49,883 nt of DNA from positions 1 to 49,883 of the forward strand of contig NCEV01000024.1 in the NCBI GenBank assembly GCA_002280875.1. The letters are read 5' to 3'. The first letter of the stretch is position 1. Each line of letters starts with the position of its first letter. Positions 1,476 through 22,711 of this stretch are shown piece after piece. The DNA is from Caulobacter sp. 32-67-35 (GTDB lineage Bacteria > Pseudomonadota > Alphaproteobacteria > Caulobacterales > Caulobacteraceae). Under the pieces are notes generated by a model, which was not told the origin of the DNA, ran no database searches, and worked only from the letters and a program-made list of their open reading frames with translations. The position numbers and the translations under genes are program-made.

Positions 1476-3385
1476 TCAAGACCTATCTAGGGCCAGGCCA
1501 GCCACGAAGACGCCGCGGCCCTGCAGAAGGCTGATGGCGGCGGTAATCGCCTTGACCGGGGTCTTCTTCCAGCGCGCCAGCATCACGACCGCGTCGGCGT
1601 GCGGGGCCAGGATGCGGGTATCGGCGATGGCCAGCAGCGGCGCCGTGTCGAGCAGCACAACGTCGAAGCGGTTGCGCAGCTCCGCCAGCAACTTGAGCAT
1701 GGCCGGCGAACCCAGAACATCGCGCGGCGTATAAGCCGACTTGGTCAGGGCCAGGACCTTGGCGCCGCTCTGGTCGGTGATCAGCGCCTGGTCCAGCGAA
1801 CAGACGCCATTGAGCACTTCCAGCAGCCCCATGGCGGGAACCTCCGGCAGGAACCGGTTGATGGCGCTCTGACGCAGATCGCAGTCGACGATGATGACGT
1901 TCGCGCCGGAGGTGGCCACAGCTTGGCGTCCTCGATCGCGGAGCTGAGCAGCGGGATCGAGCCCAGATAAGGCAGGCCGATCCGGCGCTCGACCTCGTCC
2001 TCGGTAAAGATGCCGGCCATCAGGATCTCGGCCAGGACCACGGCCGCCGCGCCTGCGCCCAGGGCCAGAACCAGACCCAAGGCCAGGTTCAGCGAAGGCT
2101 TGGGATAGCTGGGCGCGGTCGGGATCTTGGCGCGCGACACCACGCGGGCGTCAGCCTGCTCGATACCCTGGCTGCTGGAGGTCTGCTTGAAGCGGGCCAG
2201 CAGGGATTCGTAGAGGGTACGGACCGACTCGGCCTTCCGCTCCAGTTCGTTCAGGCGGATGCTGGCGCGGTTGTTGCCCGCCAGGGCGCCCTTGGACGCC
2301 GAGACGCTCCCCGCCATCGAGCCCGTGCGCTGACGCGCGACCTGGGCCTGGGCTTCCAGATTGGAGATGATCCGGCGGATTTCAGCCTGGATCTGACCAT
2401 CGATATCGGCCAGCTCGCGCTTGGCCTTCAGCAGGTCGGGGTGACGGTCGCCATAGCGGCCGCTCATGTCGGCGACCTTGGCGCTCTGTTCCGCGCGCTG
2501 CTTGCGCAGCTGCTGAACGACGGGGGAATTCAGCGACTCGCCGACGTCTTCGCCCGTGCTGCCGCGGGCCAGCTGGTTGCGGGCGATGGCCAGGCGGGCG
2601 TCGGATTCGGCCTGCTGGGCGCGGGCCGAGGCCAGCTGCTGGTTCAGGCCCGAGATTTCCTGCTCGGTCAGGGTCGCGCCCTCGGCGCTCAGCAGGTTGT
2701 TGGCGATCTTGTACTGCTGCACGGCGGCGTCGGCCGCCTGGACCTGCTCCCGGAGCTCGCCCACACGAGTGTCCAGCCATTCGTTGGCCTTCTGTGTGGC
2801 GTCGAACTTCGCTTCGAGCTGTTCCGTGAGATAGAGATTGGCGAAGGCGTTGGAGATCAGATAGGTCAGGCCCGAACGGCGGACCTTGAGGCCGTTGAGC
2901 AGGTTGTCGACAACCTTTTCCTGCTGGCGCTGGGCTTCGACGGAGTCCACGGCCGCCGTCGGCGCAACCACCTTCTTCACCCAGGGAAGCCACGAGGCCA
3001 CACCCTTCGCGCCCGGCGCGTTGGGATTGAAATAGGGGTCCTCAGTCAGCTTCAGCTGCTTGACCACCCGCGCGGCCAGGGACCGCGACTTCAGAACCTC
3101 GACCTCGGTGTCGACCACCGAGGAGTCCGCCGGCAAGCCGGACAGGACGGCGCTCATGTCCGCAACCTGCTCCTTGCGAACGTCCAGCATAACCTGGGCG
3201 GTGGCGGTGTAGCGCGGCGTTTCCTGCAGCGTGTACAGCAGCACTGCCACGAAAACCGCCAGGGCCACAGCCGCGAACAGCCGAAGCCGACGACGGAAGG
3301 TGGCGATGGCGATGTTCAGGTCAAAAGACATCGCTCCGGCGCTAGGCGCCGGAGCGTGTTGGGTCTCGAAGGAAGAGCCGTCCAT
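1476..3385 (-). pseudogene. Wzc/BY-kinase polysaccharide co-polymerase, internal deletion plus frameshift
   Basis: A chain-length determinant fused to a bacterial tyrosine kinase, which normally controls exopolysaccharide polymerisation and export from the inner membrane. The N-terminal part (ATG 3385; an upstream TTG at 3397 is less likely) has a Wzz domain with a transmembrane segment near residues 30-50, a long coiled coil, and a second transmembrane segment near LGLVLALGAGAAAVVLAEIL. After SSAIEDAK the frame breaks at about 1916-1924. The following +1 frame continues as kinase (VIIVDCDLR is Walker A', VVLLDTAPLL is Walker B) to the stop at 1476. The segment that should hold the Walker A P-loop is absent, an estimated 60-80 residues. 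As written the gene cannot make an active kinase. The same kind of break in three other genes suggests an assembly fault. Confidence 0.85.
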
Positions 3386-3447
3386 GGGTACTCTCAATGG
3401 GGGCCCTGATCGGACCTAGACCGTCAGTCTACAACTACAAGGGTAAC

Positions 3448-4722
3448 TTAGAACTGAAGAGCGACCGAAGCGGCGATCTTGTTGTCCTTGAACGAGGCGC
3501 CGCTCGCCGCACCCGAGGACTCCTGCTTGAGATAGCCGTAGGTCAGGAAGAGACCAACGTTACGGTTCAGCAGGTAGGCCGCCGAGGCGTTGAAGCCCGT
3601 GCGCTTGTCGTCGCGATCGATCGATTCATAGCTGTCCTTGCCGTAGCTGGCGTTGGCCGCCAGCAGGACATTGCGCAGCAACTCGTGATCGATGCCGATC
3701 GAGGCGTTGTTCGAGACGTAGCCTTGCGAACCGAAGGCCACCGATTCCTGGATGGTCCGCGAACCCGCGACGTTCAGGGTGGTCAGCTCGGTGGGGAACC
3801 ACTCGACGCGGCCCTTGGCGCTGAAGCCATCAATGTCGTCATAGACCGCATTGTCGTACGACTGCGACATGTAACCAGCCTCGAGCTCGCCGCGCACCGA
3901 TTGCGAGAGGTCGAAATTGGCGCCGACCGTGGCGACATAGCCATCGGAGTCGCGGCCCGCTGCGGCCACATCGTATTCCTTGGTGTTGCCGGTGAACGAA
4001 GCAAACACGGCGGTGTCGGGGCTGACAGCGTATTCAGCCTTGCCGCCGTAGTAGAATTCGTCGCGGTCACGAACGTCCTGGTCGATCACGCCGATGACGC
4101 CGCCAATGCGGTTGGCCGCATCAGCATAGTCAAAGGTCTTGGTGTCCAGGCGGCCGGTCACGCGCAGGCGGTTGAATTCCTTGACGCCGGTCAGGTTGCC
4201 GGAGAGCAGGGTGTATTCCACCGGCGCCAGGGCCGCGGCGGGCGACTGCGGCGACGTGCGCGGCTCAACCAGTTCCTGGTACTGCAGCGAACCGGCGAGA
4301 TAGGAGCCGCGCTCGACGTCCAGCCGGCCATTGACGCCCAGCGTATATTCTTCGGAGTCTTCGGTGTCGAAGTCCGAATAGCGATTGATCGAGGCCGAGG
4401 CGAACGCGCCCAGAGCATGCCGCGACCAGTTCGAACGCACAGCCACTTCAGGCTTCACGCGCCAGATCACGTCCGATTGCTCGTTCACGGCTTCGGCATA
4501 GATGTTGTCGTCGTTCATCACCTCGACGGTCACCCGCGGATACAGGGTAAAGCCGCCCGTCTTGATGCCGATGGCTTCATAGTCGGGACGCGGGCGCTGA
4601 CGGACACTAGTGTTCTTGTCGCGCTTGAAGTTCGAACCGAGATCCTGAGCCACGCCTGCGGCGGGAACAGTCGCGATAAGAACGGCCGCTACAGCGGCTG
4701 TCGTTAGAATTTTCATCGTCAT
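3448..4722 (-). CDS. Outer-membrane beta-barrel protein of the exopolysaccharide cluster
   Basis: A 424-residue exported protein with signal peptide (MKILTTAAVAAVLIATVPA, cleavage probably after AGVAQ) followed by alternating aromatic/polar strands and a C-terminal phenylalanine (KIAASVALQF), as in outer-membrane barrels. It resembles the putative beta-barrel porin-2 family (PF10082) that often sits beside Wzc-type genes in alphaproteobacterial exopolysaccharide loci. I infer a role in polymer passage or anchoring at the outer membrane. Two ATGs (4722 and 4716) are both possible; GAGG lies 9 bp before the first. Its gene lies between the secreted-protein gene and the co-polymerase gene on the same strand. 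Confidence 0.75.
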   Translation of the reverse strand: MTMKILTTAAVAAVLIATVPAAGVAQDLGSNFKRDKNTSVRQRPRPDYEAIGIKTGGFTLYPRVTVEVMNDDNIYAEAVNEQSDVIWRVKPEVAVRSNWSRHALGAFASASINRYSDFDTEDSEEYTLGVNGRLDVERGSYLAGSLQYQELVEPRTSPQSPAAALAPVEYTLLSGNLTGVKEFNRLRVTGRLDTKTFDYADAANRIGGVIGVIDQDVRDRDEFYYGGKAEYAVSPDTAVFASFTGNTKEYDVAAAGRDSDGYVATVGANFDLSQSVRGELEAGYMSQSYDNAVYDDIDGFSAKGRVEWFPTELTTLNVAGSRTIQESVAFGSQGYVSNNASIGIDHELLRNVLLAANASYGKDSYESIDRDDKRTGFNASAAYLLNRNVGLFLTYGYLKQESSGAASGASFKDNKIAASVALQF

Positions 4723-4784
4723 AAATCCCCACCTCAGGGCGCCCAGGGCGTCCAGCAGACCCAAACACAAACACAAAACTGACC

Positions 4785-4807
4785 GGGGGCGGGATCAACC
4801 CGCCCCC
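4785..4807 (-). terminator. GC-rich hairpin between secreted protein and barrel gene
   Basis: A perfect 9-bp stem (GGGGGCGGG / CCCGCCCCC) with a 5-nt loop lies just after the stop at 4818. Read on the minus strand it is followed by a T/G-rich stretch (TTTTGTGTTTGTG). It could be a terminator or attenuator limiting read-through from the secreted-protein gene into the barrel gene. Confidence 0.55.
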
Positions 4808-4817
4808 TTTGTTATTC

Positions 4818-5396
4818 TTAGCTGCCGCAGTAGGCGGCTACGACCCCTGCGCAGGGGTCGTATGGAGCCGGCGTGGTCGTCGTACCGGTTCCGGTATCCG
4901 TAGCGCCGCCGCCCGGCGTCGAAGCGCCCTGCAGGCTGACCAGCACGCTGACCGGGGCGCCGCCCTCAGTCGAAGCCGTGGCGGAAACCGAGGCGGTTTG
5001 GCCAGTCTGGGCCAGCTGCTGCTGGACGGCCGGAGCCGCCGCAACTTCCTGGGCCATCTGGGGCGCAACCACGGACGCCACCTGGATGGCGACGCCGGCG
5101 CTGAGCGTGCCGGAAGACACAGCCTGGATCAGGGCGTTGGCGATGATGGTGGGCGAAGCGCCCGACTCTGCCAGAGCGGCGGACACTTCAGCCTGGATGG
5201 CGGCGAGCTTGGCCTGAGCCGAGAGCGCGGCGAAACCCGGCGTGCTGGCGGCCTTGCGCGCGGCGGCGGAGATCACCGGCTGCAGCGAAGCGGAGGTCGC
5301 GGCAGGCGGAGTTTGAGCCCAGGCCGAAGCCCCGGCCATCGGGCCGGCGACGATAGCCAAGCCCAGCACAATGGCGCTCGTGAGACGCGTTGACAT
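4818..5396 (-). CDS. Small Ala/Thr-rich secreted protein of unknown function
   Basis: A 192-residue protein with a clear Sec signal peptide (LTSAIVLGLAIVAGPMAGAS, cleavage near AWAQ). The mature part is Ala/Gln/Ser-rich and mostly helical in composition. It then has a Gly/Thr-rich linker (GGGATDTGTGTTTTPAP) and a short tail with two cysteines (YDPCAGVVAAYCGS), which could form a disulfide in the periplasm. No family is recognised. It is the first gene of the minus-strand exopolysaccharide block, so a role in that pathway is possible by context only. A perfect 24-bp palindrome lies inside its 3' coding end (4839-4862). Confidence 0.7.
   Translation of the reverse strand: MSTRLTSAIVLGLAIVAGPMAGASAWAQTPPAATSASLQPVISAAARKAASTPGFAALSAQAKLAAIQAEVSAALAESGASPTIIANALIQAVSSGTLSAGVAIQVASVVAPQMAQEVAAAPAVQQQLAQTGQTASVSATASTEGGAPVSVLVSLQGASTPGGGATDTGTGTTTTPAPYDPCAGVVAAYCGS
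4839..4862. repeat. 24-bp perfect palindrome inside a coding sequence
   Basis: The 24 bases reading TACGACCCCTGC and then its exact complement GCAGGGGTCGTA are self-complementary with no spacer. They encode the YDPCAGVV part of the secreted protein. Together with the GC hairpin at 4785-4807 they would fold the mRNA 3' end twice. Confidence 0.7.
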
Positions 5397-6030
5397 GGCG
5401 ACCTTCCAGAATTCGATTAAGAGTTGGGAAACCTATACTGCAAGAGCGAAGAGCGCTCCAGCGCCTTTTTGCAAGTCTAGGGCGAGACCGCGCAAGACGC
5501 GTGCGTTCGCAGCCAACAAGCCATTTTTTTGAGCGAAAATCAGCACTTCCGATCGCCAAGCCGGCGAATGACGAAGACTCTGGCCCTTCCAGACCTGCAG
5601 AAACGCGCTGCAACCCGCTGATTATTCACGCCTCAGGCGAAGCGGCGGTCCAGCGCGAATATTATCGCCGACAGGCGCGACATAATTATCACAGAATTGC
5701 TGATCTAACCGGTGCGCCGGTCGGAGTCACGGCCGCCGGCGCTTCAGTTGCCGAAGGGCGCGCAGCACGGGCCGCTCAATGCTCGGCCAGATCAGCAAGG
5801 CAACAAAGCCCAGGATGACAGTTCCGGCCAACACCACGAGCTCTACCCCTTATTGTGGTTCGGATAGCATTCGATCGTGACAATTAACCCCGCGCGCAAG
5901 TCGCGGCGGCCATAAGCAGCCAAGTCTCAACGCATCGCTCAGCGCGCATGCAGGCGAGGCGCCATCTCAGCGCGCCGTGGGCATTTCGCGAACAACTGGA
6001 AACCCGTCAGTCAGGGCGGGTATCAGGTGG
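5397..6030. other. Long non-coding stretch with one candidate micro-ORF
   Basis: Between the secreted-protein start and tRNA-Thr I see no standard gene. The part next to 5396 should hold the promoter of the exopolysaccharide block. The plus-strand open frame here has no start context or recognisable domain. The only possible coding element is the short minus-strand membrane peptide at 5727-5837. Confidence 0.5.
5727..5837 (-). CDS. Candidate 36-residue single-pass membrane peptide
   Basis: Reading leftward from GTG at 5837 (a second GTG follows at once), the frame encodes a hydrophobic segment (LAGTVILGFVALLIWP) followed by a strongly basic tail (LRALRQLKRRRP) and a TGA stop. AAGGGG lies about 8 bp before the first GTG. 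Composition fits a small inner-membrane peptide with a cytoplasmic basic end. There is no homolog I recognise, and a chance ORF in high-GC DNA is quite possible. Confidence 0.3.
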   Translation of the reverse strand: MVLAGTVILGFVALLIWPSIERPVLRALRQLKRRRP

Positions 6031-6106
6031 TGGTGCCGCTTAGGTGACTCGAACACCTGACCCCATCATTACGAATGATGTGCTCTACCAGCTGAGCTAA
6101 AGCGGC
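6031..6106 (-). tRNA. tRNA-Thr (CGT)
   Basis: A 76-nt cloverleaf on the minus strand: acceptor GCCGCTT pairs with AAGCGGC, the D arm is AGCTCAGCTGGTAGAGC, and the anticodon stem CATCA/TGATG encloses loop TTCGTAA, giving anticodon CGT (reads ACG, Thr). The T arm contains GTTCGAGTC and the 3' CCA is encoded. Confidence 0.95.
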
Positions 6107-6147
6107 CCACAGCGCGTTCGGGACAGAGCCCCGGCGCGAGGAGGCGC

Positions 6148-7683
6148 CTATTTAGCGGCGCGAGGGCCGCTTGCCAAGCGTCTACGTGCGCCCGTGTTGC
6201 GGCGCGGCGCCGGCCCCTCGTCCAAGGGCTCCGGAAGCGGCGGGCTGTCGATGACGCCGGGATCGTCCGGGATCGGCATCAGGGAGCCGCCAACCTCGGC
6301 GGCCCGGACGAAGGGCGTCGACTCCACATAGGCTGACGGCAGCTCAGGCAGGTCGTTCATGGTCCGCTCGCGCCGCTCATGGCGCGGATGGATCAGGTCG
6401 CCCGTCTCGGCGAAGCTGACCGCCAGGCGCGCCCAGTCTTCGCGGCCATAGGCGAAGGCCCGGCCTTCAGGATCGAGATCGGACCAGTCGGGCTCCTGCG
6501 GCGCGGCCGCCCCACGGGCGATCCAGGCGCGCGCCTCGTCGGCCTCGCCATTGGCGAAGGCGACGCGGGCCATCAGGCCTGCAAACCGCGCCGTGGGCGC
6601 CTCCTCGTCGAGGAGACGGGCCGCAGCGCGGGCCGCGACGGGATCGCCGCCGATCAGGCCGCTTTCGACGCGCAGGATACGGCTCTCACGCGCCTCGGGC
6701 TTCATCGCCGCCAGGGCGGCCAGGCGCGCGGCGCGGAGCTTGGGCGTCTCGTTGGTCTTCAGGTCGCGATAGGCCAGCCAAAGGGCCGGGTGCGGCGCGC
6801 TCTTCCAGGCGGTCTCGATCAGTTGCCCGGCCTTGGCGACCTTGCCGTCGGCGGCCAGCAGGCGGGCGGCCATGATCACGCCCGGCGCGAAGTCGGGCTT
6901 GAGCTTGACGGCCTGGGTCGCGAAATCGAGGGCCTGGCTGCGCTTGCGGGGGTCTTCGGAGCCTTCGAGGCTGGCGGCCGAGGCGGCCAGCAGGGCGGCG
7001 CGGGCGCGCTCGGCCACCACCGGCGGCACGATCTTGCGGTCCAGGGCGCCCTGGGCGAGATCCAGCGCCGAGGCCCAGTCGCCCGCTTCAAGCCGGGATT
7101 CCAGCAAGGCGCGCCAGGCCCAGCGCGCGGTGCGCGCCAGGCCAAAGGCGGTCTCGGCATGGCGCACGGCGGCCAGCCTGTCGCCTTCGGAAAGCGCCGT
7201 CTGCATCAGACCGCGCAGCCCCGCCAGACGCATCTCGGGAAAGCCCAGCATGGCGTTGTAGGCGGCCTTGGCCGCGACATGGTCGCCGGCCGTCTCGGCC
7301 GCCTGGGCGGCGAGCACGCGCACCAGGGCAGGCGCGTCCTCGGCCAGATCGGCGGCCTTCTGGGCCAGGCGACGCGCCTCGGAGCCATCGCCGGCCGCCA
7401 CGGCCAGGAAGCCTCGCGACAGCGCTTCGACGCCCTGCTGGCGCTTGCTCTCGGCGCGGGCCCGGGCCGCGCGGCGCGGGGCCTCGATCACCCAGATCAG
7501 GCCGCGCCAGAGCACCGTGGCCGCGAGGGCGGAAAACAGGGTCAGCAGAGCGGCGGCGGCGGCGGTCATCTCGACCCGCCAGCCCATCCAGTCCAGTTGC
7601 GCCCGGCCAGGCTCCCCCATCAAGGCCAGGGTCGCCACGGCGACCACCGCCACGAAGAACAGAATCAGAGACACGCGGATCAT
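6148..7683 (-). CDS. hemY: HemY-type TPR membrane protein of the heme operon
   Basis: A 511-residue protein beginning with two transmembrane segments (LILFFVAVVAVATLAL and AALLTLFSALAATVLW), the HemY N-terminal module, then a long alanine-rich region of TPR-like helical repeats. HemY-family proteins of this type accompany hemC/hemD in proteobacteria; their biochemical role is not settled and they are not protoporphyrinogen oxidase. ATG 7683 overlaps the upstream stop (ATGA), so translation is probably coupled; the longer upstream extension is rejected. The C-terminus is Pro/Arg-rich and probably disordered. Confidence 0.85.
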   Translation of the reverse strand: MIRVSLILFFVAVVAVATLALMGEPGRAQLDWMGWRVEMTAAAAALLTLFSALAATVLWRGLIWVIEAPRRAARARAESKRQQGVEALSRGFLAVAAGDGSEARRLAQKAADLAEDAPALVRVLAAQAAETAGDHVAAKAAYNAMLGFPEMRLAGLRGLMQTALSEGDRLAAVRHAETAFGLARTARWAWRALLESRLEAGDWASALDLAQGALDRKIVPPVVAERARAALLAASAASLEGSEDPRKRSQALDFATQAVKLKPDFAPGVIMAARLLAADGKVAKAGQLIETAWKSAPHPALWLAYRDLKTNETPKLRAARLAALAAMKPEARESRILRVESGLIGGDPVAARAAARLLDEEAPTARFAGLMARVAFANGEADEARAWIARGAAAPQEPDWSDLDPEGRAFAYGREDWARLAVSFAETGDLIHPRHERRERTMNDLPELPSAYVESTPFVRAAEVGGSLMPIPDDPGVIDSPPLPEPLDEGPAPRRNTGARRRLASGPRAAK

Positions 7684-8561
7684 GGCGCGGCCCGCGAAAC
7701 CTGGGCGAGCCCGGCCAGCGCATCGGCGCGGATGGCCGTGACATGGCGATCCACCTCGACGCGGCGCTCGGCCGAGGCCAGCCATGGGGCCAGAACGATC
7801 CGGGCCGGATCGGGCAGGGTGTCGAGCGCGCGGATCGCGCTCTCGACATCGCCTTCGTCGAGCAGGCGCTGGGCCCTGGCCAGCTTGGCGTCGGGCGTGG
7901 CGCCGCGGGTCGAGCTGACCTGGCGGATCGAGACGATGCTGGACAGGGCGTAGCGCACGCGGGCCAGCAGGTCGGCGTCTTCGCCCGGATTGCGGGCGGC
8001 CGTGGCCGCGCGCGCCGCCAGGGATTCAAACTCGGCCGCCAGGCCCGCCCGGGTCGGAGCGCCGGTCTGGGCCAGGCGCGACAGGGCGCGCAGGTCGGCC
8101 GACATCGGCAATACCCGCTCGAGACTGGCGAGTTCTTCTTCGAACGACCCCGAGGTCTGGGCGGCCTCGGCCAGGGCCGCCGCGGCGAGCGAAGCGGCGG
8201 CCGCGTCCAGAACGCCCTTCTGGCCCGCTTCCAGCAGGGCGAGGCGCGTTTCGAGGCGCTCGATCTCAGCGTCGGCGCCAACCACGGTCGGCGCCGCGCC
8301 TTCCAGCGGGATGGGCGAACCGACTGGCGCTCGCGCCGCCGGCGGCGTTACGCTGGGCGCGGCCTGAACCGGGCTGTCACCGGAAGGCTTCACCGGAAAC
8401 CAGGTCGGCCCGAACCGGGTGACCAGCGCGCCGAGCATCACACAGAACACGCAGAGGGCAATCATCGCCCAGAAGCTGGGCCCGAGAAGCGGGCGGCGAC
8501 GGGCGTACAGCGCAGGATCGCTGGGCATGACGGTTTCAGCGGCATCTGGAGCGACGTTCAT
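7680..8561 (-). CDS. Mitofilin-like membrane protein between hemD and hemY
   Basis: A 293-residue protein with a short cytoplasmic N-terminus, one transmembrane helix (FWAMIALCVFCVMLGALVTR), a Pro/Ala-rich linker and a long helical, coiled-coil-prone periplasmic part. This matches the COG4223/mitofilin-related proteins found next to hemD and hemY in alphaproteobacteria, which are relatives of the Mic60 membrane-shaping protein. Start ATG 8561 gives MNVAPDAAE; GTG 8579 is a weaker alternative. It is 42 bp after hemD and overlaps hemY by 4 bp. Confidence 0.75.
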   Translation of the reverse strand: MNVAPDAAETVMPSDPALYARRRPLLGPSFWAMIALCVFCVMLGALVTRFGPTWFPVKPSGDSPVQAAPSVTPPAARAPVGSPIPLEGAAPTVVGADAEIERLETRLALLEAGQKGVLDAAAASLAAAALAEAAQTSGSFEEELASLERVLPMSADLRALSRLAQTGAPTRAGLAAEFESLAARAATAARNPGEDADLLARVRYALSSIVSIRQVSSTRGATPDAKLARAQRLLDEGDVESAIRALDTLPDPARIVLAPWLASAERRVEVDRHVTAIRADALAGLAQVSRAAP

Positions 8562-8603
8562 GCGCCATTCGTGCCCCACGCCGCACCGCCGCGCAATGTG
8601 CAG

Positions 8604-9299
8604 CTATCGCGGAAGGAGATCGAGCAGGGCAGATTCGCGAGGACGCGACGCAAAGGCCACAGAGCCGACCCGCCCCTTGCCGAGCGCGGCGGCCAGCGGT
8701 TCGGCGACGGCTTGTGACAGGCACAGAACGCGAAGGGCCGGCGCAGGCGCGCTTTCCAGAACGGCCGCCAGACCGCGCGCCGCGCGGGGGGAGTGCAGCA
8801 GGGCGGCGTCGAAACCGGCGAGGGCGGCCAGGGTCTCTGACGTCGGCGAGCGGTCAAGCGCGGCATAGACGGGCAGGGCCCGCGCCGTGAGGCCTTCGGC
8901 CTGAAGACGGGCGGGAAGGTCGACGGCGGGCTCGCTGGCCCCGGCGCACAGAAGCGGTCCCGGCCGCGCCCGCGCAATCAGCGCCGCCAGGGCTTCGACA
9001 TCGCCGTCGGCGCTGGCCGGCTTAGCAAAACCCGCGGCGCGGGCGGCGCGGGTCGTGGTCTCGCCGACCGCGAAGACGGGCAGATCCCGCCCGGCGGTCA
9101 GACGCGCGAAGGCCTCGACACCGTTGGCGCTGGTGAAGGCCAGGGCCGCGATCCCGCTCAGGTCGACGACCGGATCAAGAAATACGATCTCCAGCAGGGG
9201 GTCGACACGCGCCTGAAAGCCCAGCGCCTCGACGCGGCGGGCGGTGGACTCGGCGCCGGGACGGGCGCGGGTGATCCAGATCGCCCCGCTGGCGGTCAT
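8604..9299 (-). CDS. hemD: Uroporphyrinogen-III synthase
   Basis: A 231-residue cytoplasmic enzyme that closes hydroxymethylbilane into uroporphyrinogen III, the step after HemC. Sequence conservation in HemD is low, but the two-lobed pattern is visible: ITRARPGAESTARRVEALG at the N-terminus, LAFTSANGVEAFARL near residues 52-66 and a C-terminal LCLSQAVAEPLAAALG segment. It starts 4 bp after the hemC stop, and co-transcription with hemC supports the call. Confidence 0.9.
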   Translation of the reverse strand: MTASGAIWITRARPGAESTARRVEALGFQARVDPLLEIVFLDPVVDLSGIAALAFTSANGVEAFARLTAGRDLPVFAVGETTTRAARAAGFAKPASADGDVEALAALIARARPGPLLCAGASEPAVDLPARLQAEGLTARALPVYAALDRSPTSETLAALAGFDAALLHSPRAARGLAAVLESAPAPALRVLCLSQAVAEPLAAALGKGRVGSVAFASRPRESALLDLLPR

Positions 9300-9302
9300 C
9301 GT

Positions 9303-10259
9303 CTAGTCCGGCAGGATCAGGGCGTCGCCGCCCTCGGCCTTGACGGCCAGGCCCAGCGACAGGCCCAGATCGCGGGCGGCGGTGACGTCGTCCGGTCCGT
9401 CCAGCGTCACCTGGCCCTCGCGGCGGAAGCGCTGAACGCCGTCGGGCGTCAGGGCCTCGACGATCAGCGACAGGCGCTGGCCGTCCAGGGTGGCGTAGGC
9501 GCCGATGGCCGTGCGGCACGAGCCCTCGAGCGCGTAGAGCGCCCCGCGCTCGGCGGCGACACAGACCGTGGTCGGGCGGCAGCGGACGGCCTCAAGCCAG
9601 TCGGCGTTCACATCTTCAAGGCGCGTCTCGATCACGAGGGCGCCCTGGCCCGGGGCCGGCGGGCAGGCGATGGGGTCCAGCCAGCTCTTGGGCAGATGGC
9701 CCAGACCCAGACGGTTCAGGCCCGACTGGGCCAGCAGGATGGCGTCGGCCTCGCCGCGTTCCAGCTTGGCCAGGCGGGTGTCGACATTGCCGCGCAGCAT
9801 GACGATCTGCAGATCGGGCCGCACATGCAGGGCCTGGGCCTGGCGACGCAGCGAAGCGGTGCCCAGGCGCGCGCCGTGGGGCAGGTCTTCCAGTCGATCG
9901 CAGAGGGTGCTGATGAAGGCGTCGCGGGGATCCTCGCGCTCGGGCGTGGCGGCCAGGATCAGGCCCGGCGGCAGCTCGGCCGGCATGTCCTTCAGCGAGT
10001 GGATGGCGCAGTCGATACGGCCGTCCAGCAGGGCTTCCTCAATCTCCTTGGTGAACAGGCCCTTGCCGCCGATCTCCATCAGGCGTCGGTCCTGGATGCG
10101 GTCGCCCGTGGTGACGATCGGGATCAGCGGCGCATAGGCCTGCTCCTCGCCGGGCGCAGCGCCGAGGGCGGCGGCGATCCGGGCCTGCATGAGGCCCGAT
10201 TGCGCCAGGGACAGCTTGGAGCCACGGGCGCCGATACGGATGGGAGGTTGCCGGGACAC
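9303..10259 (-). CDS. hemC: Porphobilinogen deaminase (hydroxymethylbilane synthase)
   Basis: A 318-residue cytosolic enzyme joining four porphobilinogens. Seen: the N-terminal RIGARGSKLSLAQ, the catalytic region SLKDMPAELPPGL, and the dipyrromethane cofactor cysteine in EGSCRTAIGAYA. I place the start at GTG 10259 (protein begins VSRQPPIRIGARGSK), because it gives the family's usual length; the open frame further upstream runs antisense into tsaD. It is divergent from tsaD across about 72 bp, which must hold both promoters. Confidence 0.92.
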   Translation of the reverse strand: MSRQPPIRIGARGSKLSLAQSGLMQARIAAALGAAPGEEQAYAPLIPIVTTGDRIQDRRLMEIGGKGLFTKEIEEALLDGRIDCAIHSLKDMPAELPPGLILAATPEREDPRDAFISTLCDRLEDLPHGARLGTASLRRQAQALHVRPDLQIVMLRGNVDTRLAKLERGEADAILLAQSGLNRLGLGHLPKSWLDPIACPPAPGQGALVIETRLEDVNADWLEAVRCRPTTVCVAAERGALYALEGSCRTAIGAYATLDGQRLSLIVEALTPDGVQRFRREGQVTLDGPDDVTAARDLGLSLGLAVKAEGGDALILPD

Positions 10260-10331
10260 GGTCTGAACGTTACCTGCGGGGACGAGATTTGAAGCCCTGC
10301 TGCTACAGGACCGGCGGAAAGCCCGCAACCG

Positions 10332-12421: not shown

Positions 12422-12446
12422 ACACTGTTATATATAAGGAGTGTCG

Positions 12447-12728
12447 ATGCCTCTCTTCGCCATCACCTGCAGGGACAAGCCCGGCGCCCTTGAGACGCGC
12501 CTGGCCACCCGCCCGGTTCACCTCGACTACCTCAAGGAATCGACCGGCCTGAAGCTGGCCGGCGCCCTGCTGGGCGAGGACGGCAATCCGGTCGGCTCGC
12601 TGCTGATCGTCGAGGCCGACGATCTGGCCGCCGCCCAGGCCCAGGCCGACAACGACCCCTTCACCACCGCCGGCGTGTTCGAGAGCGTCGAGGTCCGCCC
12701 CTGGCGTCTGGCAATCGGCGAGCTCTAG
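12447..12728 (+). CDS. YCII-family protein
   Basis: A 93-residue YciI-like (PF03795) ferredoxin-fold protein: FAITCRDKPGALETR, then RPVHLDYLKE, LAGALLGEDG, a GSLLIVEADDLAAAQA segment and DPFTTAGVFESVEVRPW. Biochemical function of most members is unknown. The start is ATG 12447 because AAGGA at 12436-12440 is 6 bp upstream; the GTG at 12441 would abut it. It follows gpsA by 25 bp and precedes the Rieske gene by 7 bp. Confidence 0.85.
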   Translation: MPLFAITCRDKPGALETRLATRPVHLDYLKESTGLKLAGALLGEDGNPVGSLLIVEADDLAAAQAQADNDPFTTAGVFESVEVRPWRLAIGEL

Positions 12729-12735
12729 CTCGTAC

Positions 12736-13101: not shown

Positions 13102-13117
13102 AAAGGCCGGTCGGGGG

Positions 13118-13776
13118 TTAGCCGGGAGCCCTCTCCGCCGAGAACGCCGCCAGGTCCTCAATCAGGGCCCGGGCCGCCATCGCCACCAGCTCACCGCCCT
13201 TTTCTTCGGTTCATAGGCCGCAGTCTTGATCGTATCGGGATAGGCCCACTGGGTCACGGCGATCTCGGACGGCGTCGCATGGCTACCGTGGCCGACGGGA
13301 AACTGCCGGTTGGCCAGGGCGTTGACGCCGGCCAGATCCCACCAGTTCTTCAGCTTCAGGGCGAATGGGGCCCGTGCCCCGCGGAAGCTGTAATCGGCAT
13401 AGATCTCCGAGAACGCCGCCTCGATGGAGGCGACATTGCCGCCGTGGCCGTTCAGAAAATAGATCCGCTCGAACCCGTGCGCGCCCAGCGAGCGCACCCA
13501 GTCGCCGATCGCAGCGATGAAGGTCGAGGGGCGCAGGAAGATCGTGCCCGGAAAGGCCAGATGGTGCTGGGCCATGCCGATATTGAAGGTCGGGGCTACC
13601 AGCACGGTGTCCGACAGCTTCTGGGCCTCGTGCGAAATGATCTCCGGACAAAGCCAGTCGGTGCCGAGCAAGCCTGTAGGGCCGTGCTGCTCGTTGGAGC
13701 CGATCGGCACGACCACCGTCCTGCTGGTTTTCAGGAAGGTCTCGATCTCGGACCAGGTTGAAAGGGCGAGCAGCAT
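13118..13776 (-). pseudogene. Creatininase-family amidohydrolase, internal deletion plus frameshift
   Basis: Creatininase-fold hydrolases use a two-metal site to open or deformylate small amides. From ATG 13776 (GGAGG 5 bp upstream) the frame shows VPIGSNEQHGP, GTDW, NGHGGNVAS and TPSEIAVTQ, which are the metal and catalytic motifs. After KTAAYEPK the frame breaks near 13200-13204. The neighbouring frame then continues with GGELVAMAARALIEDLAAF to TAA at 13118, a normal family C-terminus. The conserved stretch between, which normally carries the last Gly/Asp-rich loop, is missing. The gene is divergent from acsA. Confidence 0.8.
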
Positions 13777-13904
13777 GAGAACCTCCGAAGCCACAGGTCA
13801 TCGGCATAGCGCGCGATGATCTCGCAAGAAACCGCAATGGTATCCTTGCGCGCGCGCGCGGCCTTCGCATACTCCCGCCGCAACAAGACCAAGGGAGTGA
13901 TGGC

Positions 13905-15845
<1,941 letters not shown>

Positions 15846-15911
15846 ACAGAGGCCTCTCAAGAAAAAGGCGTTTGGACCTAACCGAACCTGCGCCGGCGCG
15901 TTAGCGTAAAC

Positions 15912-16487
15912 ATGATGCGCCGGTTCCTCGCCCTCGTCCTGACATTCGCCCTGGCGACGCCGGTTCTGGCGGAGGCCGAATGGACAGAAAAGCTGCGGGC
16001 CGGCGAGATCCCCATCGAGGCCCATGCCGACGCCAGAGGCCGCGGCGGCATGGTCAAGGCGGCGATCGACATTCCCGCCCCGGCGGCCGTGGTCTGGCGC
16101 ACGATCCTGGACTGCGACCGGGCAGCCCGCATGACCCCCGGCGTCAAGCATTGCAGGGTGATCACCCGCGCGCCGGATAGCCGGTCCGAGACGCGCGAGC
16201 ACCGGGTCAAGTGGGGCTTTTTCCTGCCGACCCTGCGCTCGGTCTCGCGCGTGGAGTTCGACCCCGGCCGCACGATCCGCTTTACCTGCGTGAGCGGTGA
16301 TATCCGCGCCTGCGAGGGCTCCTGGACGCTTGCGCCGATCAAGGGCGGAACCGCCACCCGCGTGACCTACGAGATGTGGGCCGCCGCGCCCTTCGCCGTG
16401 CCGGTCTCCGTCCTGAGCGGCCTGATGCGCCGTGATGTTCCGGACGCGTTGCGCGCCTTGCGTCGCGAATGCCTGGACGCCGGATGA
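15912..16487 (+). CDS. Exported SRPBCC (START-like) domain protein
   Basis: A 191-residue protein with a signal peptide (RFLALVLTFALATPVLAEA) followed by a lipid-binding SRPBCC/polyketide-cyclase-like fold: IDIPAPAAVVWRTILDCD near the N-terminus, HRVKWGFFLPTLRSV, IRACEGSWTLAPI and a final helix LMRRDVPDALRALRREC. Likely periplasmic; ligand unknown. Its TGA overlaps the start of the DCC-family gene. Confidence 0.8.
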   Translation: MMRRFLALVLTFALATPVLAEAEWTEKLRAGEIPIEAHADARGRGGMVKAAIDIPAPAAVVWRTILDCDRAARMTPGVKHCRVITRAPDSRSETREHRVKWGFFLPTLRSVSRVEFDPGRTIRFTCVSGDIRACEGSWTLAPIKGGTATRVTYEMWAAAPFAVPVSVLSGLMRRDVPDALRALRRECLDAG

Positions 16488-16918
16488 CGGGCGTCCCGGC
16501 TGAGGCGCCCGACGGCCTGTGGCTGTTCGACGGCGTCTGCAATCTCTGCTCGGGATCGGTCGCCATCGTTCTGAAGTTGGACCGCGAAGGCGTCATCCGC
16601 TTCACGCCGATCCAGTCGCCGTATGGCCGCCAGCTGGCCGCCGCCCACGGGATAGACCCCGACCAGCCCGCCAGCTTCCTGTTCCTGGACGGCGGGCGTG
16701 CGTTACAGAAGACCGCCGCCATCGGCGCCCTGCTGAGGCGACTGAAGCCGCCCTGGCGCTGGCTGGCCGTTGTCGACCGCCTGCCCCGGGGTCCCGCAGA
16801 CGCGGCCTATGACTGGCTCGCCGCCAACCGCTACCGGCTGATGGGCAAGAAGGACGCCTGCATGGTTCCTTCCCCCGCCGACCGCGCGCGGTTCATCCTC
16901 GACCCGCCCGACAGATGA
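16484..16918 (+). CDS. DCC-family thiol-disulfide oxidoreductase-like protein (DUF393)
   Basis: A 144-residue protein with the defining N-terminal motif FDGVCNLCSGSV (DxxCxxC), then FTPIQSPYGRQLAAAHG and a C-terminal YRLMGKKDACMVPS. The family is related to thioredoxin-like redox proteins, but its substrates are not known. ATG 16484 overlaps the upstream stop (ATGA) and is preferred to ATG 16469, which would add five residues inside the previous gene. Confidence 0.85.
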   Translation: MTGVPAEAPDGLWLFDGVCNLCSGSVAIVLKLDREGVIRFTPIQSPYGRQLAAAHGIDPDQPASFLFLDGGRALQKTAAIGALLRRLKPPWRWLAVVDRLPRGPADAAYDWLAANRYRLMGKKDACMVPSPADRARFILDPPDR

Positions 16919-17006
16919 ACGCCACCGCTTCATGACAGGACGGTAAGGTTTCGCTCTCGCGAGGCGATGCTAGGGTCGGGCAACCGCGTTTGCTGGAGCT
17001 CTCCGA

Positions 17007-19774
17007 ATGATCCGTCCTGTCGCCAAGGCCGCCCTTGTGGCGCTGGCTCTCTCGACCACCGCCCTCTCGCCCATGGCCTTCGCGGCCCAGAGCACGGCCA
17101 GCGCGCCGTCGATCAGCGTGCCGCCGATCGTCTACAAGGAGCGCGTGCTGGCCAACGGCCTGAAGGTGTTCACGGCTCGCGACACGACCACGCCCAACGT
17201 GACGGTGCAGGTCTGGTATGGCGTCGGCTCAAAGGACGACCCAGAGGGCCGCTCGGGCTTTGCCCACCTCTTTGAACACCTGATGTTCAAGGCCACGCGC
17301 AACATGCCCAACGAGACCCTCGACCGGCTGACCGAGGACGTGGGCGGCTTCAACAACGCCTCCACCTATGACGACTTCACCAACTACTACGAGGTGGTGC
17401 CCGCCAACCATCTGGAGCGCCTGCTGTGGGCCGAGGCCGACCGCCTGGGCTCGCTGGTGATCGACGAGGCGGTGTTCGCCTCCGAGCGCGACGTCGTGAA
17501 GGAAGAGCTGCGCCAGCGCGTGCTGGCCGACCCCTATGGCCGCCTGTTCGCCCTCTATGTGCCGCAGCAGTCGTTCACGAGCCACCCCTACAAGCGCCCC
17601 GGCATCGGTTCGATCGAGGAACTGGACGCGGCCACGGTCGATGACGTGCGCGCCTTCCACGCCACCTACTACCGCCCCGACAACGCCGCCCTGATCGTGG
17701 CCGGCAATTTCGACGAGGCCCAGCTGCAGGCCCTGGTCGACAAGTATTTCGCGCCGCTGAAGACCCCGGCTGCACCCCTGCCCAAGGTGACGGTGGTCGA
17801 GCCGCCCCGCACCGGCCCCAAGACCGTCAACACCTATGGGCCCAATGTGCCCCTGCCGGCGGTGGCGATCACCTGGCTGGCCCCGGCCTCGGCCGACAAG
17901 GACACGCCCGCCCTGGCCGTGCTGGACGCCATCCTCTCGGCCGGCAAGTCTTCGCGCCTGTACGACACCCTGGTCTATGACCAGCAGATCGCCCAGACGG
18001 TGTTCTCGTCGGGTCCGACCAACGCCCAGCCGGGCCTGTTCTATGTCGGCGCCGTCATGGCCGGCGGCAAGACGGCGCAGCAGGGTGAGGCCGCCCTGCT
18101 GGCCCAGGTCGCGCGGCTGCGCGACGCCCCGCCCACCGCCGCCGAACTGGCTGAGGCCAAGACCGGCCTGCTGGCCGACGCTGTCCGTCGTCGCGAGGAG
18201 ATCGATGGCCGCGCCTTCGCCATCGGCTACGCCCTGCTGACCGACGGCGACGCCGCCCGCGCCAACACCAATCTGGCCGATTTGCAGGCGGTGACCGCCG
18301 CCGACGTCCAGCGCGTTGCGAAAAAGTGGCTGGCCGACGACCGTCGCACGTCCATCCGCTATCTGCCGGAATCGGCCCGCCCGGCTGGCGAGACGGACAA
18401 TACCCCGGTCCCGCCCAAGGTGGCCTCGGTGAAGTTCGACGGCGCGATCACCACCCTGGCCCCCGAGGCCGAGCGCCAGAAGATCCCGGCCGTGGCCGCC
18501 CCGATCGCCGCCGTCCTGCCCTCGCCAGTGGAGAAGACTTTGGCGAATGGTCTTCGGGTCATTGTCGCCAAGTCGAGCGACCTGCCGCTGATCACCGCCG
18601 ACCTGACCGTGCGCGGCGGGGCCAGCGCCGATCCGGCTGGCCTGGCCGGCGCCTCCAGCCTGACCGCCGACCTGCTGACCGAGGGTACCAAGACCCGCGG
18701 CGCGGTCGACATCGCCCGTCAGACCGAAGCGCTTGGCGCCAATCTGGCCGCCGGCTCGGGCTGGGAAGCTTCCTCCCTGACCCTCAGCGTCATCGCCGAC
18801 AAGGCCGCCCCGGCCATGGCGATCATGGCCGACGTCGCCCAGAACCCGGTCTTCAAGGCCGAGGAACTGGACCGGGTTCGCGCCGAGACCCTGGACGGCC
18901 TGTCGGTGGCCTATCAGCGCCCGGGCAGCCTGGCCGCCTACGCCACCGCCCCCGTGCTGTATGCCGGTTCGGCCTACGGCCACGTGGCCGGCGGCACGCC
19001 GGGTTCGCTGCCGAAGATCAAGCGCGATGATCTGGTCAAACTGCATTCCGCCGCCTGGGCGGCTGGAAGAAGCCTGCGGCCGCGCCTCCGGCACTGCCCG
19101 CTGCGCCAACCGGTTACAAGCCGCGCAATGTGGTCATCGACCTGCCGGGCACGGGCCAGGCGGCCGTGACCCTGGCCAAGCCCACCATTACTCGCGCCGA
19201 TCCCAACTACTATTCGGGCCTGGTCACCAACGCCGTACTGGGGGTGGGCTATTCCTCGCGCCTGAACCAGGAAATCCGCATCAAGCGCGGCCTGTCCTAC
19301 GGCGCCGGCTCCAGCCTGACGCCGCAGGGCCAGTTCGGCGGCTTCTCGGCCCGGGTGCAGACCAAGAACGAGTCCGCCGGTCAGGTGGTCGGCCTGGTCC
19401 AGGCCGAGCTGACCCGGCTGGCCGCAGAGCCGGCCTCGGCCAGCGAACTGACGGCCCGCAAGTCGGTGCTGGTCGGCGGCTTTGGCCGTGACCTGGGCAC
19501 CTCCGAGGGCCTGGCCGACATCCTGGGCAACCTGGCCGTCTATGGCGTGCCGCTGAACGAGATCCAGAGCTATGCGGCCAAGGTCGAGGCGGTCAGCGCC
19601 AGCGACGTTCAGGCCTTCGCCAAGAGCATGATGGACCCCGCCCAGACCAGCATCATCGTCGCCGGCGATCTGAAGGCGATGGGCGACACCCTGCCCGCCG
19701 CCGTGCCGAACGCCACGGTGATCCCGGCCGCCAGGCTGGACCTGGACAGCCCGACCCTGACCAGCGGGAAGTAG
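17007..19774 (+). pseudogene. M16 zinc metallopeptidase (two-domain), internal deletion plus frameshift
   Basis: An exported pitrilysin/M16 peptidase, expected in the periplasm. It has a signal peptide (AALVALALSTTALSPMAFA) and the inverted zinc motif HLFEH at His87/Glu90/His91, with KEELRQR downstream as the third-ligand region. The second, inactive M16 half begins near residue 510. After HSAAW (residue 684) the frame breaks at 19058-19060. The next frame runs GGWKKPAAAP onward with a normal C-terminal half (RIKRGLSYGAGSSL) to TAG at 19774. Roughly 25-30 residues expected between SAAW and GGWKK are absent. Confidence 0.85.
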
Positions 19775-19786
19775 GCGCTTCAAGCC

Positions 19787-19827
19787 TCGTCATCCCGGAC
19801 GGCCGCAAGGCCGATCCGGGATGACGA
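19787..19827. terminator. Long hairpin between convergent M16 and mscL genes
   Basis: The arm TCGTCATCCCGGACGGCC pairs with its complement across a GCAA tetraloop, with a single bulged A. It lies between two convergent genes and so could end transcription from both sides, although no long T-run follows. The CATCCCGGA palindrome style is typical of dispersed intergenic repeats. Confidence 0.6.
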
Positions 19828-19829
19828 TC

Positions 19830-20336
19830 TTACTTGGCCTTCGGCTTGGGTTTCACCGCAGCCTTGGCAGGGGCCTTCGCCACAGCCGCCTTGGGCGCCG
19901 ATACGGCGACCTTGGGCGCCGCTCCCTTGGCCAGCAGGTCCCGGATCTCCATCAGCAGAGCCTCCTCGCCCGTCGGGGCCGCGGGCGTCTCGGGCCCAGG
20001 CTCGGCGGCGTCGGCGCGGCGGATGCCATTGACCACCTTGACCAGCAGGAAGACCACGGCCGCCACGATCACGAACTGGATCAGGGTGTTGATGAAGGCG
20101 CCGTACTGGACGGCGACCTTCTCGATGGCCTCGGTGGCCGGGTCCTCGGGCTTGAGCACCCATTCCAGCTTGGAGAAATCGAGGCCGCCCGTCAGCAGGC
20201 CGATGGGCGGCATGATCACCTGGTCGACCAGGCTCTTGACGATGCCGTTGAAGGCCGCGCCGATGATCACGCCTACGGCCAGATCGATGACATTGCCCCG
20301 CGAGATGAACTCGCGAAATTCCTTGATGACGCTCAT
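19830..20336 (-). CDS. mscL: Large-conductance mechanosensitive channel MscL
   Basis: A 168-residue inner-membrane channel that opens under hypo-osmotic stress. The N-terminus MSVIKEFREFISRGNVIDLA leads into TM1 (LAVGVIIGAAFNGIVKSLV), a periplasmic loop, and TM2 (LIQFVIVAAVVFLLVKVV). The protein is about 30 residues longer than the 136-residue E. coli protein. The extra C-terminus is a lysine/alanine/proline-rich repeat-like tail (APAKAAVKPKPKAK) after the usual helical bundle (EEALLMEIRDLL). Confidence 0.96.
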   Translation of the reverse strand: MSVIKEFREFISRGNVIDLAVGVIIGAAFNGIVKSLVDQVIMPPIGLLTGGLDFSKLEWVLKPEDPATEAIEKVAVQYGAFINTLIQFVIVAAVVFLLVKVVNGIRRADAAEPGPETPAAPTGEEALLMEIRDLLAKGAAPKVAVSAPKAAVAKAPAKAAVKPKPKAK

Positions 20337-20413
20337 GACCGGTCTCGCCGATTAGCCCTGCGGAAGTCGCGAAGCTGATGGCGTTCGGCCCCCAAGGTCA
20401 AGGGCGGGTCAGG

Positions 20414-20698
20414 TTACTCGTCGGCGTTGAGCCGGGCCCGCAGTTCCTTGCCGCTCTTGAAGAACGGCACGTGCTTGGCGCGAACATCGACGGTTTCGCC
20501 GGTGCGCGGATTGCGGCCCGAGCGCGCTGGGCGCGAGCGGACCGACAGGGCGCCAAAGCCCCGAAGCTCGACGCGACCGCCGCCTTCCAGAGCGCCAATC
20601 ATGCGCTCCAGGATTACGCTGACAACGCGCTCGACGTCTTTCTGCGTCAGGTGCGGATTTTCATTCGCGAGCCTGGCGATGAGTTCAGACTTGATCAT
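20414..20698 (-). CDS. ihfB: Integration host factor beta subunit
   Basis: A 94-residue HU/IHF-family nucleoid protein that pairs with IHF alpha to bend DNA sharply. Seen: [19 protein letters not shown], the beta-arm [13 protein letters not shown], the tip RNPRTGE with the intercalating proline, and [11 protein letters not shown]. The N-terminal IKSELI and the position downstream of rpsA, a common proteobacterial arrangement, favour IhfB over HU or IhfA. Confidence 0.94.
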
Positions 20699-21053
20699 CG
20701 ATATCCCCGGCGCCGGAGGGAGGAACTGGCGCGACCGGACCTTTGCCCAAGGGTGGTTGAGTCTTCAAGAGCCTGCGTGCGATTCTCATCCAGCTTGAGA
20801 GTTTACCTCGCATGGCCATGGCACATGAACGTCGCGCCTGAGGCCCTGTGAGAGGCGCCAGCGGGCGTCAGATGGCGCCCGGAGAGCATTTTTTTGGGCG
20901 ATAACCGTCGAGTGAGGTCGAAAGAACCACACGGCGCCGAGGTGCGCCGAGCGCGCCTATTTTGAGCGGGCGCGCCCCGCCATGGTGAGTGGCGTCTTCA
21001 CCAAATGCGTCCCCATCCAAAGACTTAGCGGGACCGCAAGCAAGGCGGACGCA
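20699..21053. other. Spacer between rpsA and ihfB
   Basis: No convincing gene is seen on either strand. It should hold the ihfB promoter, because the strong terminator at 21054-21086 separates ihfB from rpsA. I see no clear operator or RNA. Confidence 0.5.
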
Positions 21054-21086
21054 AAGAAAACGGCGGCCGGATCGCTCCGGCCGCCG
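21054..21086 (-). terminator. Rho-independent terminator of rpsA
   Basis: Read on the minus strand, an 11-bp perfect GC stem (CGGCGGCCGGA with its complement, 4-nt loop) is followed directly by TTTTCTTT. It begins about 30 bp after the rpsA stop. Confidence 0.85.
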
Positions 21087-21117
21087 CTGACTTCAGTCTC
21101 TCAGGTGAGAGCGAAGA

Positions 21118-22711
21118 CTATTCCTTCGGGGTGGCCCGTTCGCGGAGAGCCGCGCCCAGGATATCGCCCAGCGAAGCGCCGGAGTCCGACGAGCCGAACT
21201 GCTCGATGGCTTCCTTTTCTTCGGCCATTTCCAGCGACTTGATCGACATCGAAACGCGGCGGGCCGCCTTGTCGATATTGGTGATCTGAGCGTCGACGCG
21301 GTCACCCACGGCGAAGCGCTCGGGGCGCTGTTCCTGACGGTCGCGCGACAGGTCCGACTTGCGGATGAACGCGGTCATCAGGGCGTCGTCTTCGCCGAAG
21401 CGAACTTCGATGCCGCCGGTGGTCACTTCGGTCACGGTGACGGTCACGGTCTGGTTCTTGCGATAGGTGTCGCCCGACATCGGATCGCCACCCAGCTGCT
21501 TGATGCCCAGCGAGATGCGTTCCTTCTCGACGTCAACGTCGAGAACCTTCGCCTTGACCATGTCGCCCTTCTTGTAGCGGGCCATGGCTTCTTCGCCCGA
21601 GGCGCTCCAGTCGATGTCCGACAGGTGCACCATGCCGTCGATGTCGTTGTCGAGGCCGATGAACAGACCAAACTCGGTCGCGTTCTTGACTTCGCCTTCG
21701 ACGGTCGAGCCGACCGGGTGGGTTTCGAGGAACGAATCCCACGGGTTGGCCAGAGCCTGCTTCAGGCCCAGCGATACGCGACGCTTGGACGGATCGACGT
21801 CCAGCACGACCACGTCGACTTCCTGCGAGGTCGAGACGATCTTGCCGGGGTGGACGTTCTTCTTGGTCCAGGACATTTCCGAGACGTGGACCAGGCCTTC
21901 AACGCCGGCTTCCAGCTCAACAAACGCGCCGTAGTCGGTGATGTTGGTGATGCGGCCCGTGAACTTGGCGCCGACCGGGTACTTGGCTTCGACACCATCC
22001 CACGGATCCGACTGCAGCTGCTTCATGCCGAGGCTGATGCGCTGGGTGTCCGGGTTGATCTTGACGATCTGGACCTTGACGGTGTCGCCAACGGCCAGGA
22101 CCTGCGACGGGTGGTTGACGCGCTTCCAGCTCATGTCGGTGACGTGCAGCAGGCCGTCGATGCCGCCCAGGTCAACGAACGCACCGTAGTCGGTGATGTT
22201 CTTGACTCTTGAGGATGGCGAAGGGCTGTTCCTTGCCCATGAGCGGACCGACGTCGCGCACGGGGCGGATGTCGACCTGCGAACCGGGCAGGAACGCCGA
22301 GGCGCCGCCCAGGTCGACGGTGAAGCCGCCTTTGACGCGACCGACGATGGCGCCCATGACGGGCACGTTCTGGGCGTAGACGCCTTCCAGACGGGTCCAG
22401 GCTTCTTCGCGCTTGGCCTTTTCGCGGCTGATGACCGCTTCGCCGAGGGCGTTTTCCAGGCGTTCCAGGAAGACTTCGACGTGGTCGCCGACCTTGATGG
22501 TGGGCTTGCCGGCGTCATCAACGCCGAATTCCTTTTGCGGAACGCGACCTTCGGTCTTCAGACCGACGTCGATGATCGCGAAGTCCTTTTCAATCCCGAC
22601 AACGATGCCCTTGACGACAGTGCCTTCGGCAAAGTCGCGGCCGCCCATGGAATCGTTCAGCAGCGCTTCGAAATCGTCGCGCGTCGGGTTGAAGCTCATA
22701 TCGTCAGCCAT
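21118..22711 (-). pseudogene. rpsA: 30S ribosomal protein S1, internal deletion plus frameshift as sequenced
   Basis: S1 binds mRNA on the 30S subunit and is needed for translation of most messages. The N-terminal frame (ATG 22711, MADDMSFNPTRDD) encodes S1 repeat 1 and most of repeat 2 (GGFTVDLGGASAFLPGS) up to EQPFAILK. The frame then breaks at about 22206-22210. The neighbouring frame resumes at VKNITDYGAFVDLGG, the start of repeat 3, and continues through the remaining repeats (ITDYGAFVELEAGVEGLVH; NATEFGLFIGL) to TAG 21118. About 45 residues (end of repeat 2, linker, start of repeat 3) are missing. Loss of an essential gene is unlikely in a living cell, so an assembly deletion is favoured. 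Confidence 0.9.

What the first reader, a model, noticed from the sequence alone, without database searches (positions are those of the whole stretch)
1476..22711. Four conserved genes share the same kind of internal deletion with frameshift
The Wzc kinase (break ~1920), creatininase-family gene (~13202), M16 peptidase (~19059) and rpsA (~22208) each read correctly on both sides of one sharp join where an internal coding segment is missing and the frame shifts. No remnant, repeat or mobile element lies at any join. Independent decay of four genes including rpsA is improbable; a systematic assembly or sequencing deletion, or an edited sequence, is more likely.
Basis: partly seen in the sequence, partly recalled or inferred. 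Interest (0 to 1): 0.75.

Follow-up and report, generated by a model that had tools for sequence, protein, structure and literature searches.

The report
Assembly joins mimic broken genes
Four genes in this Caulobacter draft genome look broken most likely because stretches of about 80 to 190 bases were lost where the assembly was joined together; it is an ordinary data error, not biology.

Summary
Against relatives, the Wzc-like, creatininase, M16 and rpsA genes each lack one internal block of 187, 94, 79 and 119 bp, near window 1918-1921, 13202-13204, 19057-19058 and 22206/22207. None is a multiple of three. For rpsA, 36 of 36 genomes with both flanks on one contig carry the same 119 bp. The missing blocks were not found elsewhere in the assembly.

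The cause is not local. In 125 kb of this draft comparable with at least two relatives, ten deletions of 79-231 bp have exactly the same length in two or more relatives; in 214 kb of relatives tested the same way there is none above 21 bp. Two more joins rest on other calls. The pieces after the break are still constrained, most clearly in rpsA (pN/pS 0.05-0.09), weakly in M16. The window ends at a 12-N scaffold gap where the closest relative has 218 bp.

Best reading: contigs were abutted across unassembled gaps whose length was underestimated. That it is an artefact is well supported; the exact assembly step is inferred. Not a biological feature.

The parts
1476..1918 (-). Downstream (C-terminal) piece of the Wzc-like chain-length/tyrosine kinase gene
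   Evidence: clean frame; AAA_31 E 9.9e-5, below Pfam's own cut-off
1918..1921 (.). Join 1: 187 bp present in relatives is missing; exact junction uncertain by a few bases
   Evidence: 3 of 3 relatives; missing block not found elsewhere in the genome
1920..3397 (-). Upstream piece of the Wzc-like gene (Wzz and GNVR domains)
13118..13204 (-). C-terminal tail piece of the creatininase-family gene
   Evidence: clean frame to stop; no Pfam match for 28 residues; aligns with relatives
13202..13204 (.). Join 2: 94 bp missing
   Evidence: 5 of 5 relatives; missing block not found elsewhere
13204..13794 (-). N-terminal piece of the creatininase-family gene
   Evidence: PF02633 E 5.9e-52
17007..19057 (+). 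N-terminal piece of the M16 peptidase gene
   Evidence: PF00675 and PF05193
19057..19058 (.). Join 3: 79 bp missing; a related draft (G006) has a contig break spanning the same place
   Evidence: 4 of 4 relatives; G006 contigs match up to window 18992 and again from 19115; missing block not found elsewhere
19058..19774 (+). C-terminal piece of the M16 peptidase gene
   Evidence: PF05193 E 1.4e-20, profile entered at position 43
21118..22206 (-). C-terminal piece of rpsA (four S1 domain stretches)
   Evidence: PF00575, 4 stretches; pN/pS 0.05-0.09
22206..22207 (.). Join 4: 119 bp missing
   Evidence: 36 of 36 genomes with both flanks on one contig; 40/40 junction bases fit two relatives with 0 bp ambiguity; missing block not found elsewhere
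22207..22711 (-). N-terminal piece of rpsA (two S1 stretches)
   Evidence: PF00575

Best explanation
The four breaks are assembly joins, not mutations. Shown: a block of 79-187 bp present in relatives is absent at each, the junctions are abrupt, and the same happens on other contigs of this draft. Inferred: the assembler could not cover these short stretches, a paired-read scaffolder or gap closer ordered the flanking contigs correctly but judged the gap to be zero or negative, and it abutted them without Ns. Where the true gap was larger, a short run of Ns was left, such as the 12-N run directly after the window. The genes themselves are most likely intact in the organism.
For: Missing lengths agree among relatives at every window join. 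Recurrence on contigs C50 and C121: 92, 111, 231, 115, 123 and 99 bp with equal lengths in two or more relatives, plus 131 bp at C50:95465 in G001, G007 and G021, 128 in G002, and 89 or 93 bp at C50:106373. Control: 10 equal-length deletions of 79 bp or more in 124,638 bases of this draft covered by at least two relatives, against none above 21 bp in 213,710 bases of five blocks from G001, G002 and G007. Missing blocks not found elsewhere (40 candidates scored in each). One rpsA locus found, the broken one. Constraint after the break. Junction ambiguity 0-2 bp in most comparisons. The 12-N run at window 49884 stands where G006 has 218 bp and four other relatives about 183-411 (my arithmetic). 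The rpsA join sequence was in no record of genome contigs, a collection that may leave out the window's own genome.
Against: No read data, so coverage at the joins was not seen. Only one N gap could be calibrated; the flanks of the second (20 N on C50) are poorly conserved. The agreed frame-breaking sizes start at 79 bp, whereas random coverage gaps should include small ones; this needs small gaps to have been bridged by single reads, or another mechanism. Some junctions have more ambiguity with one relative: 4 bp at creatininase, 5 bp at C121:73737 (and a 14-bp overlap of the two matches there), 8 bp at C50:103550. G+C and folding stand out clearly in only one and partly in a second of eight joins tested. 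M16 shows loose constraint after the break (0.40-0.62). The assembly's method and origin are unknown here.
Confidence: 0.8

Rival explanations
1. The loss arose inside the assembly graph: k-mers covering variant or low-depth positions (for example from co-occurring strains) were removed and the flanking unitigs were joined with the block dropped. Still an artefact, but not a scaffolding one.
For: The smallest agreed frame-breaking block is 79 bp, which resembles a k-mer-length floor. G016 has two contigs overlapping by about 121-127 bp whose edge falls within about 6 bases of the rpsA join.
Against: Graph joins should keep an overlap; most junctions have 0-2 bp ambiguity. Sizes vary widely, 79-231 bp. 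N runs show that scaffolding was used.
Confidence: 0.15
2. Real deletions in the organism: four here, and if extrapolated hundreds genome-wide, of recent internal deletions inactivating genes including rpsA.
For: The sequence as deposited reads so; nothing in the letters alone forbids it. M16 is only loosely constrained after the break.
Against: Only one rpsA locus was found and it is broken; that ribosomal protein S1 is needed for life in such bacteria is recalled, not from a call. Constraint persists past the breaks in rpsA and the Wzc-like gene. No such deletions in the relatives tested. Little or no repeat at junctions.
Confidence: 0.01
3. The sequence was edited deliberately or damaged after assembly.
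For: Clean joins at arbitrary places.
Against: Same joins on other contigs of the held genome; scaffold N gaps give a simpler cause.
Confidence: 0.02

Closest known systems
Spurious pseudogenes from assembly error in bacterial genomes (PMC11017572; abstract and passages seen)
   Same: Conserved genes appear frame-shifted because of assembly, platform or coverage, not evolution.
   Different: That paper says it did not assess metagenome-assembled genomes and counts frame shifts and internal stops in general; here each case is the loss of a whole block of about 80-230 bp at a join.
Collapsed or underestimated scaffold gaps in draft assemblies (general knowledge, recalled)
   Same: Correct order and orientation of flanks, wrong gap length, short N runs elsewhere.
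   Different: In the parts sampled, joins without any N outnumber N runs, which hides them.

Membership tests
Assembly or scaffold gap-join artefact | Block present in relatives is absent, flanks in order and orientation | tested here: met
Assembly or scaffold gap-join artefact | Recurs across unrelated genes and contigs of one assembly, not in related assemblies | tested here: met
   10 equal-length deletions of 79-231 bp on three contigs in 124,638 comparable bases, none above 21 bp in 213,710 bases of five control blocks
Assembly or scaffold gap-join artefact | Scaffold gaps with underestimated length elsewhere | tested here: inconclusive
   met at the one gap that could be measured: 12 N against 218 bp in G006; the second could not be measured
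Assembly or scaffold gap-join artefact | Read depth collapses at joins; reads or pairs carry the missing block | not testable with these tools
   no reads held
True pseudogene by deletion | Relaxed selection after the lesion | tested here: not met
   not met for rpsA (0.05-0.09 after the break) and Wzc-like (0.22-0.28); M16 is inconclusive (0.40-0.62 after, 0.12-0.43 before); the creatininase tail was not tested
True pseudogene by deletion | Intact second copy for an essential gene | tested here: not met
   one rpsA locus found in the genome
True pseudogene by deletion | Repeat- or element-mediated junction | tested here: not met
   window joins: 0-2 bp ambiguity in seven of eight comparisons, 4 bp in one

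The most novel reading that the evidence does not exclude
A living lineage whose genome really carries hundreds of fresh 80-230 bp internal deletions, including in its only rpsA gene, from some unknown deletion-generating process.
Probability: 0.01. Interest if true: 0.9.

Novelty: not a real feature. Interest (0 to 1): 0.08.

Why it matters
Only as a warning. A draft with good quality figures (96.31% complete, 1.79% contamination) can hide many N-free joins that turn intact genes into apparent pseudogenes. Gene-loss or pseudogene counts made from this assembly would be wrong, and a simple comparison with relatives exposes the problem.

Tried and rejected
Hard-to-sequence DNA as the cause: the missing blocks (as seen in relatives) were compared with 150 random segments of the same length for G+C and DNA folding. 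Of eight joins tested, creatininase stood out clearly and C121:82283 in part, so this is not a general cause. A hotspot shared by other drafts: for the M16 join, 32 of the 34 other genus genomes with a match have matches on both sides, and only G006 has them on two contigs. Missing block sitting elsewhere in the assembly: not found; 40 of 732 and 40 of 207 candidates were scored, and contigs C10, C60 and C110 read wholly as N and could not be seen. Short repeats causing recombination: little ambiguity at most junctions. The second N gap (20 N, C50:99710) gave no firm length because its flanks are weakly conserved. A 20-kb stretch of C90 (L107) showed no clear join on inspection. Not counted: breaks seen with one relative only (several) and sites where relatives disagree in length, which occur both in this draft (8 such sites: C122 7685, 41730, 48697; C121 43631, 50282, 59716; C50 76895, 104190) and in the controls (7 such sites, insertions included); also the in-frame 45-bp difference at window 2850. 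The control has one equal-length deletion, 21 bp. C50:106373 (89 and 93 bp) also has unequal lengths; I count it only as one of the two extra joins, because the junction is at the same base in both. My first version of the scan left out lengths up to 60 divisible by three; one search repeats it without that filter and is the one cited. A plasmid search with rpsA and paper searches (listings only) added nothing further except PMC11017572. A paper on the Caulobacter essential genome was not held.

Full report
Identity of the sequence. The window is positions 1-49,883 of contig C122 (78,883 bases) of a 4,100,120-base, 163-contig draft, listed as 96.31% complete with 1.79% contamination. The window stops where it does because a run of 12 Ns begins at 49,884.

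The four joins. Comparison with five same-genus genomes over the whole window and alignment at each place show one missing block at each reported gene. Wzc-like: 187 bp, 3 of 3 relatives aligned. Creatininase: 94 bp, 5 of 5. M16 peptidase: 79 bp, 4 of 4. rpsA: 119 bp, 5 of 5. For rpsA the wider search of 40 other genomes found both flanks on one contig in 36, and in all 36 the distance between them is 119 bp longer than in the window (my arithmetic on the table); 3 had only pieces that do not reach across the join and 1 had no match. None of the four lengths is a multiple of three, so each shifts the frame. Both sides read cleanly in their own frames, and Pfam finds the expected domains in seven of eight pieces, the short creatininase tail being the exception and the Wzc AAA_31 match lying below Pfam's own cut-off. 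The stretches 34,293-39,249 and about 46,244-47,456 have no collinear match in the five relatives and are untested.

Nature of the junctions. A scan of every possible junction point shows 0-2 bp ambiguity in seven of eight comparisons at the window joins and 4 bp in one (creatininase against G021). At rpsA the 40 bases around the junction fit two relatives perfectly with no ambiguity; at the Wzc-like gene the fit is poorer (25 and 29 of 40), so that junction is uncertain by a few bases. The blocks missing from creatininase, M16 and rpsA, and separately from the Wzc-like gene, were searched for in the whole genome with a relative's sequence and were not found elsewhere (40 candidates scored each time). 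Three contigs that read wholly as N (C10, C60, C110) could not be seen. The rpsA join sequence occurs in no record of genome contigs, a search that may leave out the window's own genome.

Are the genes dead? Synonymous and non-synonymous differences were counted against relatives on each side of the breaks. rpsA after the break has pN/pS 0.05-0.09 over about 360 codons; before it, 0.11-0.19. The Wzc-like gene has 0.19-0.22 before and 0.22-0.28 after; creatininase 0.08-0.20 before, its short tail not being tested. M16 is looser, 0.12-0.43 before and 0.40-0.62 after. So rpsA and the Wzc-like gene show constraint past the break, and M16 is only weakly informative. One rpsA locus was found in the genome and it is the broken one. 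That S1 is needed for life in such bacteria is recalled knowledge; the essential-genome paper I tried was not held.

Recurrence in the genome. Other parts of the same draft were compared with two to five relatives. Contig C121 has three joins: near 16656 (92 bp; 5 of 5 relatives), 73737 (111 bp in 3 of 3, 112) and 82283 (231 bp, 3 of 3). Contig C50 has five: near 95465 (131 bp in G001, G007 and G021, 128 in G002), 103550 (115 bp, 2 of 2), 105205 (123 bp, 2 of 2), 106373 (89 and 93 bp) and 109128 (99 bp, 2 of 2), four of them within 5.6 kb. With the window's four this makes twelve, of which ten meet the strict rule of equal length in at least two relatives. Of the twelve, 231, 123 and 99 are multiples of three, as are the 111 reading of C121:73737 and the 93 reading of C50:106373. 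A further 20 kb of contig C90 showed none on inspection.

Control. In one search the scan was run on 124,638 bases of this draft covered by at least two relatives and on 213,710 bases of five blocks from G001, G002 and G007. Equal-length deletions of 17 bp or more: in this draft ten of 79-231 bp and one in-frame of 45 bp (window 2850); in the controls one, in-frame, of 21 bp. Sites where relatives disagree in length, typical of natural variation, occur in both sets. Ten in 125 kb is about eight per 100 kb; if that held everywhere the draft would contain some 300 such joins. This is an extrapolation from a non-random sample with a cluster in it.

Mechanism. In about 0.85 Mb of the draft sampled for N runs, two were found apart from wholly masked contigs: 12 and 20 bases long. 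At the 12-N run directly after the window, the closest relative G006 has 218 bp, and four others about 183-411 (in these four the match stops 64-122 bp before the run, so their figures include diverged flank). The assembly was therefore scaffolded, and at this place the gap length is too small by roughly 200 bp. If the same shortfall applied to the joins, true gaps of 79-231 bp would be judged to be about zero and the contigs abutted without Ns. This last step is inferred from one calibrated gap. G+C content or folding does not explain in general why these stretches were not assembled. At the M16 join the related draft G006 also broke its contigs, but it is the only one of 32 genomes with matches on both sides to do so. 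A graph-level cause, with k-mer-sized losses, remains possible and would explain why no small frame-breaking sizes are seen; it is listed as a rival.

Comparison with what is known. Spurious pseudogenes from assembly are documented in bacterial genomes (PMC11017572; abstract and passages seen), with assembler, sequencing platform and read coverage named as likely causes; that study says it did not assess metagenome-assembled genomes. The present case differs in that whole blocks are lost at N-free joins. Nothing here is a new biological feature.

Verdict. Observation confirmed; interpretation as a systematic assembly deletion supported; editing not needed; real gene decay very unlikely. Raw reads across the joins would settle it.

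Noticed in passing
window 49,883 end; G000:C122:49884-49895: A 12-N scaffold gap directly follows the window; relatives have far more sequence there (218 bp in G006).
   Followed up: yes
G000:C50:103549-109128 (L217): Four of the joins lie within 5.6 kb, a dense cluster a few kilobases after a 20-N run at C50:99710.
   Followed up: partly
window 46,285-46,916: Intergenic DNA made of short pieces that match many dispersed places among the five relatives searched: looks like a family of dispersed repeats; no Rfam match there.
   Followed up: no
window 34,293-39,249: About 5 kb without collinear match in the five relatives searched, inside otherwise conserved order: probable insertion or island.
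   Followed up: no
   Followed up: partly
   Followed up: no
window 2850: In-frame 45-bp difference in the Wzc-like gene shared by three relatives, probably natural length variation.
   Followed up: no
window 6034-6106, 25559-25631, 33100-33183: Three tRNA genes (Rfam).
   Followed up: no
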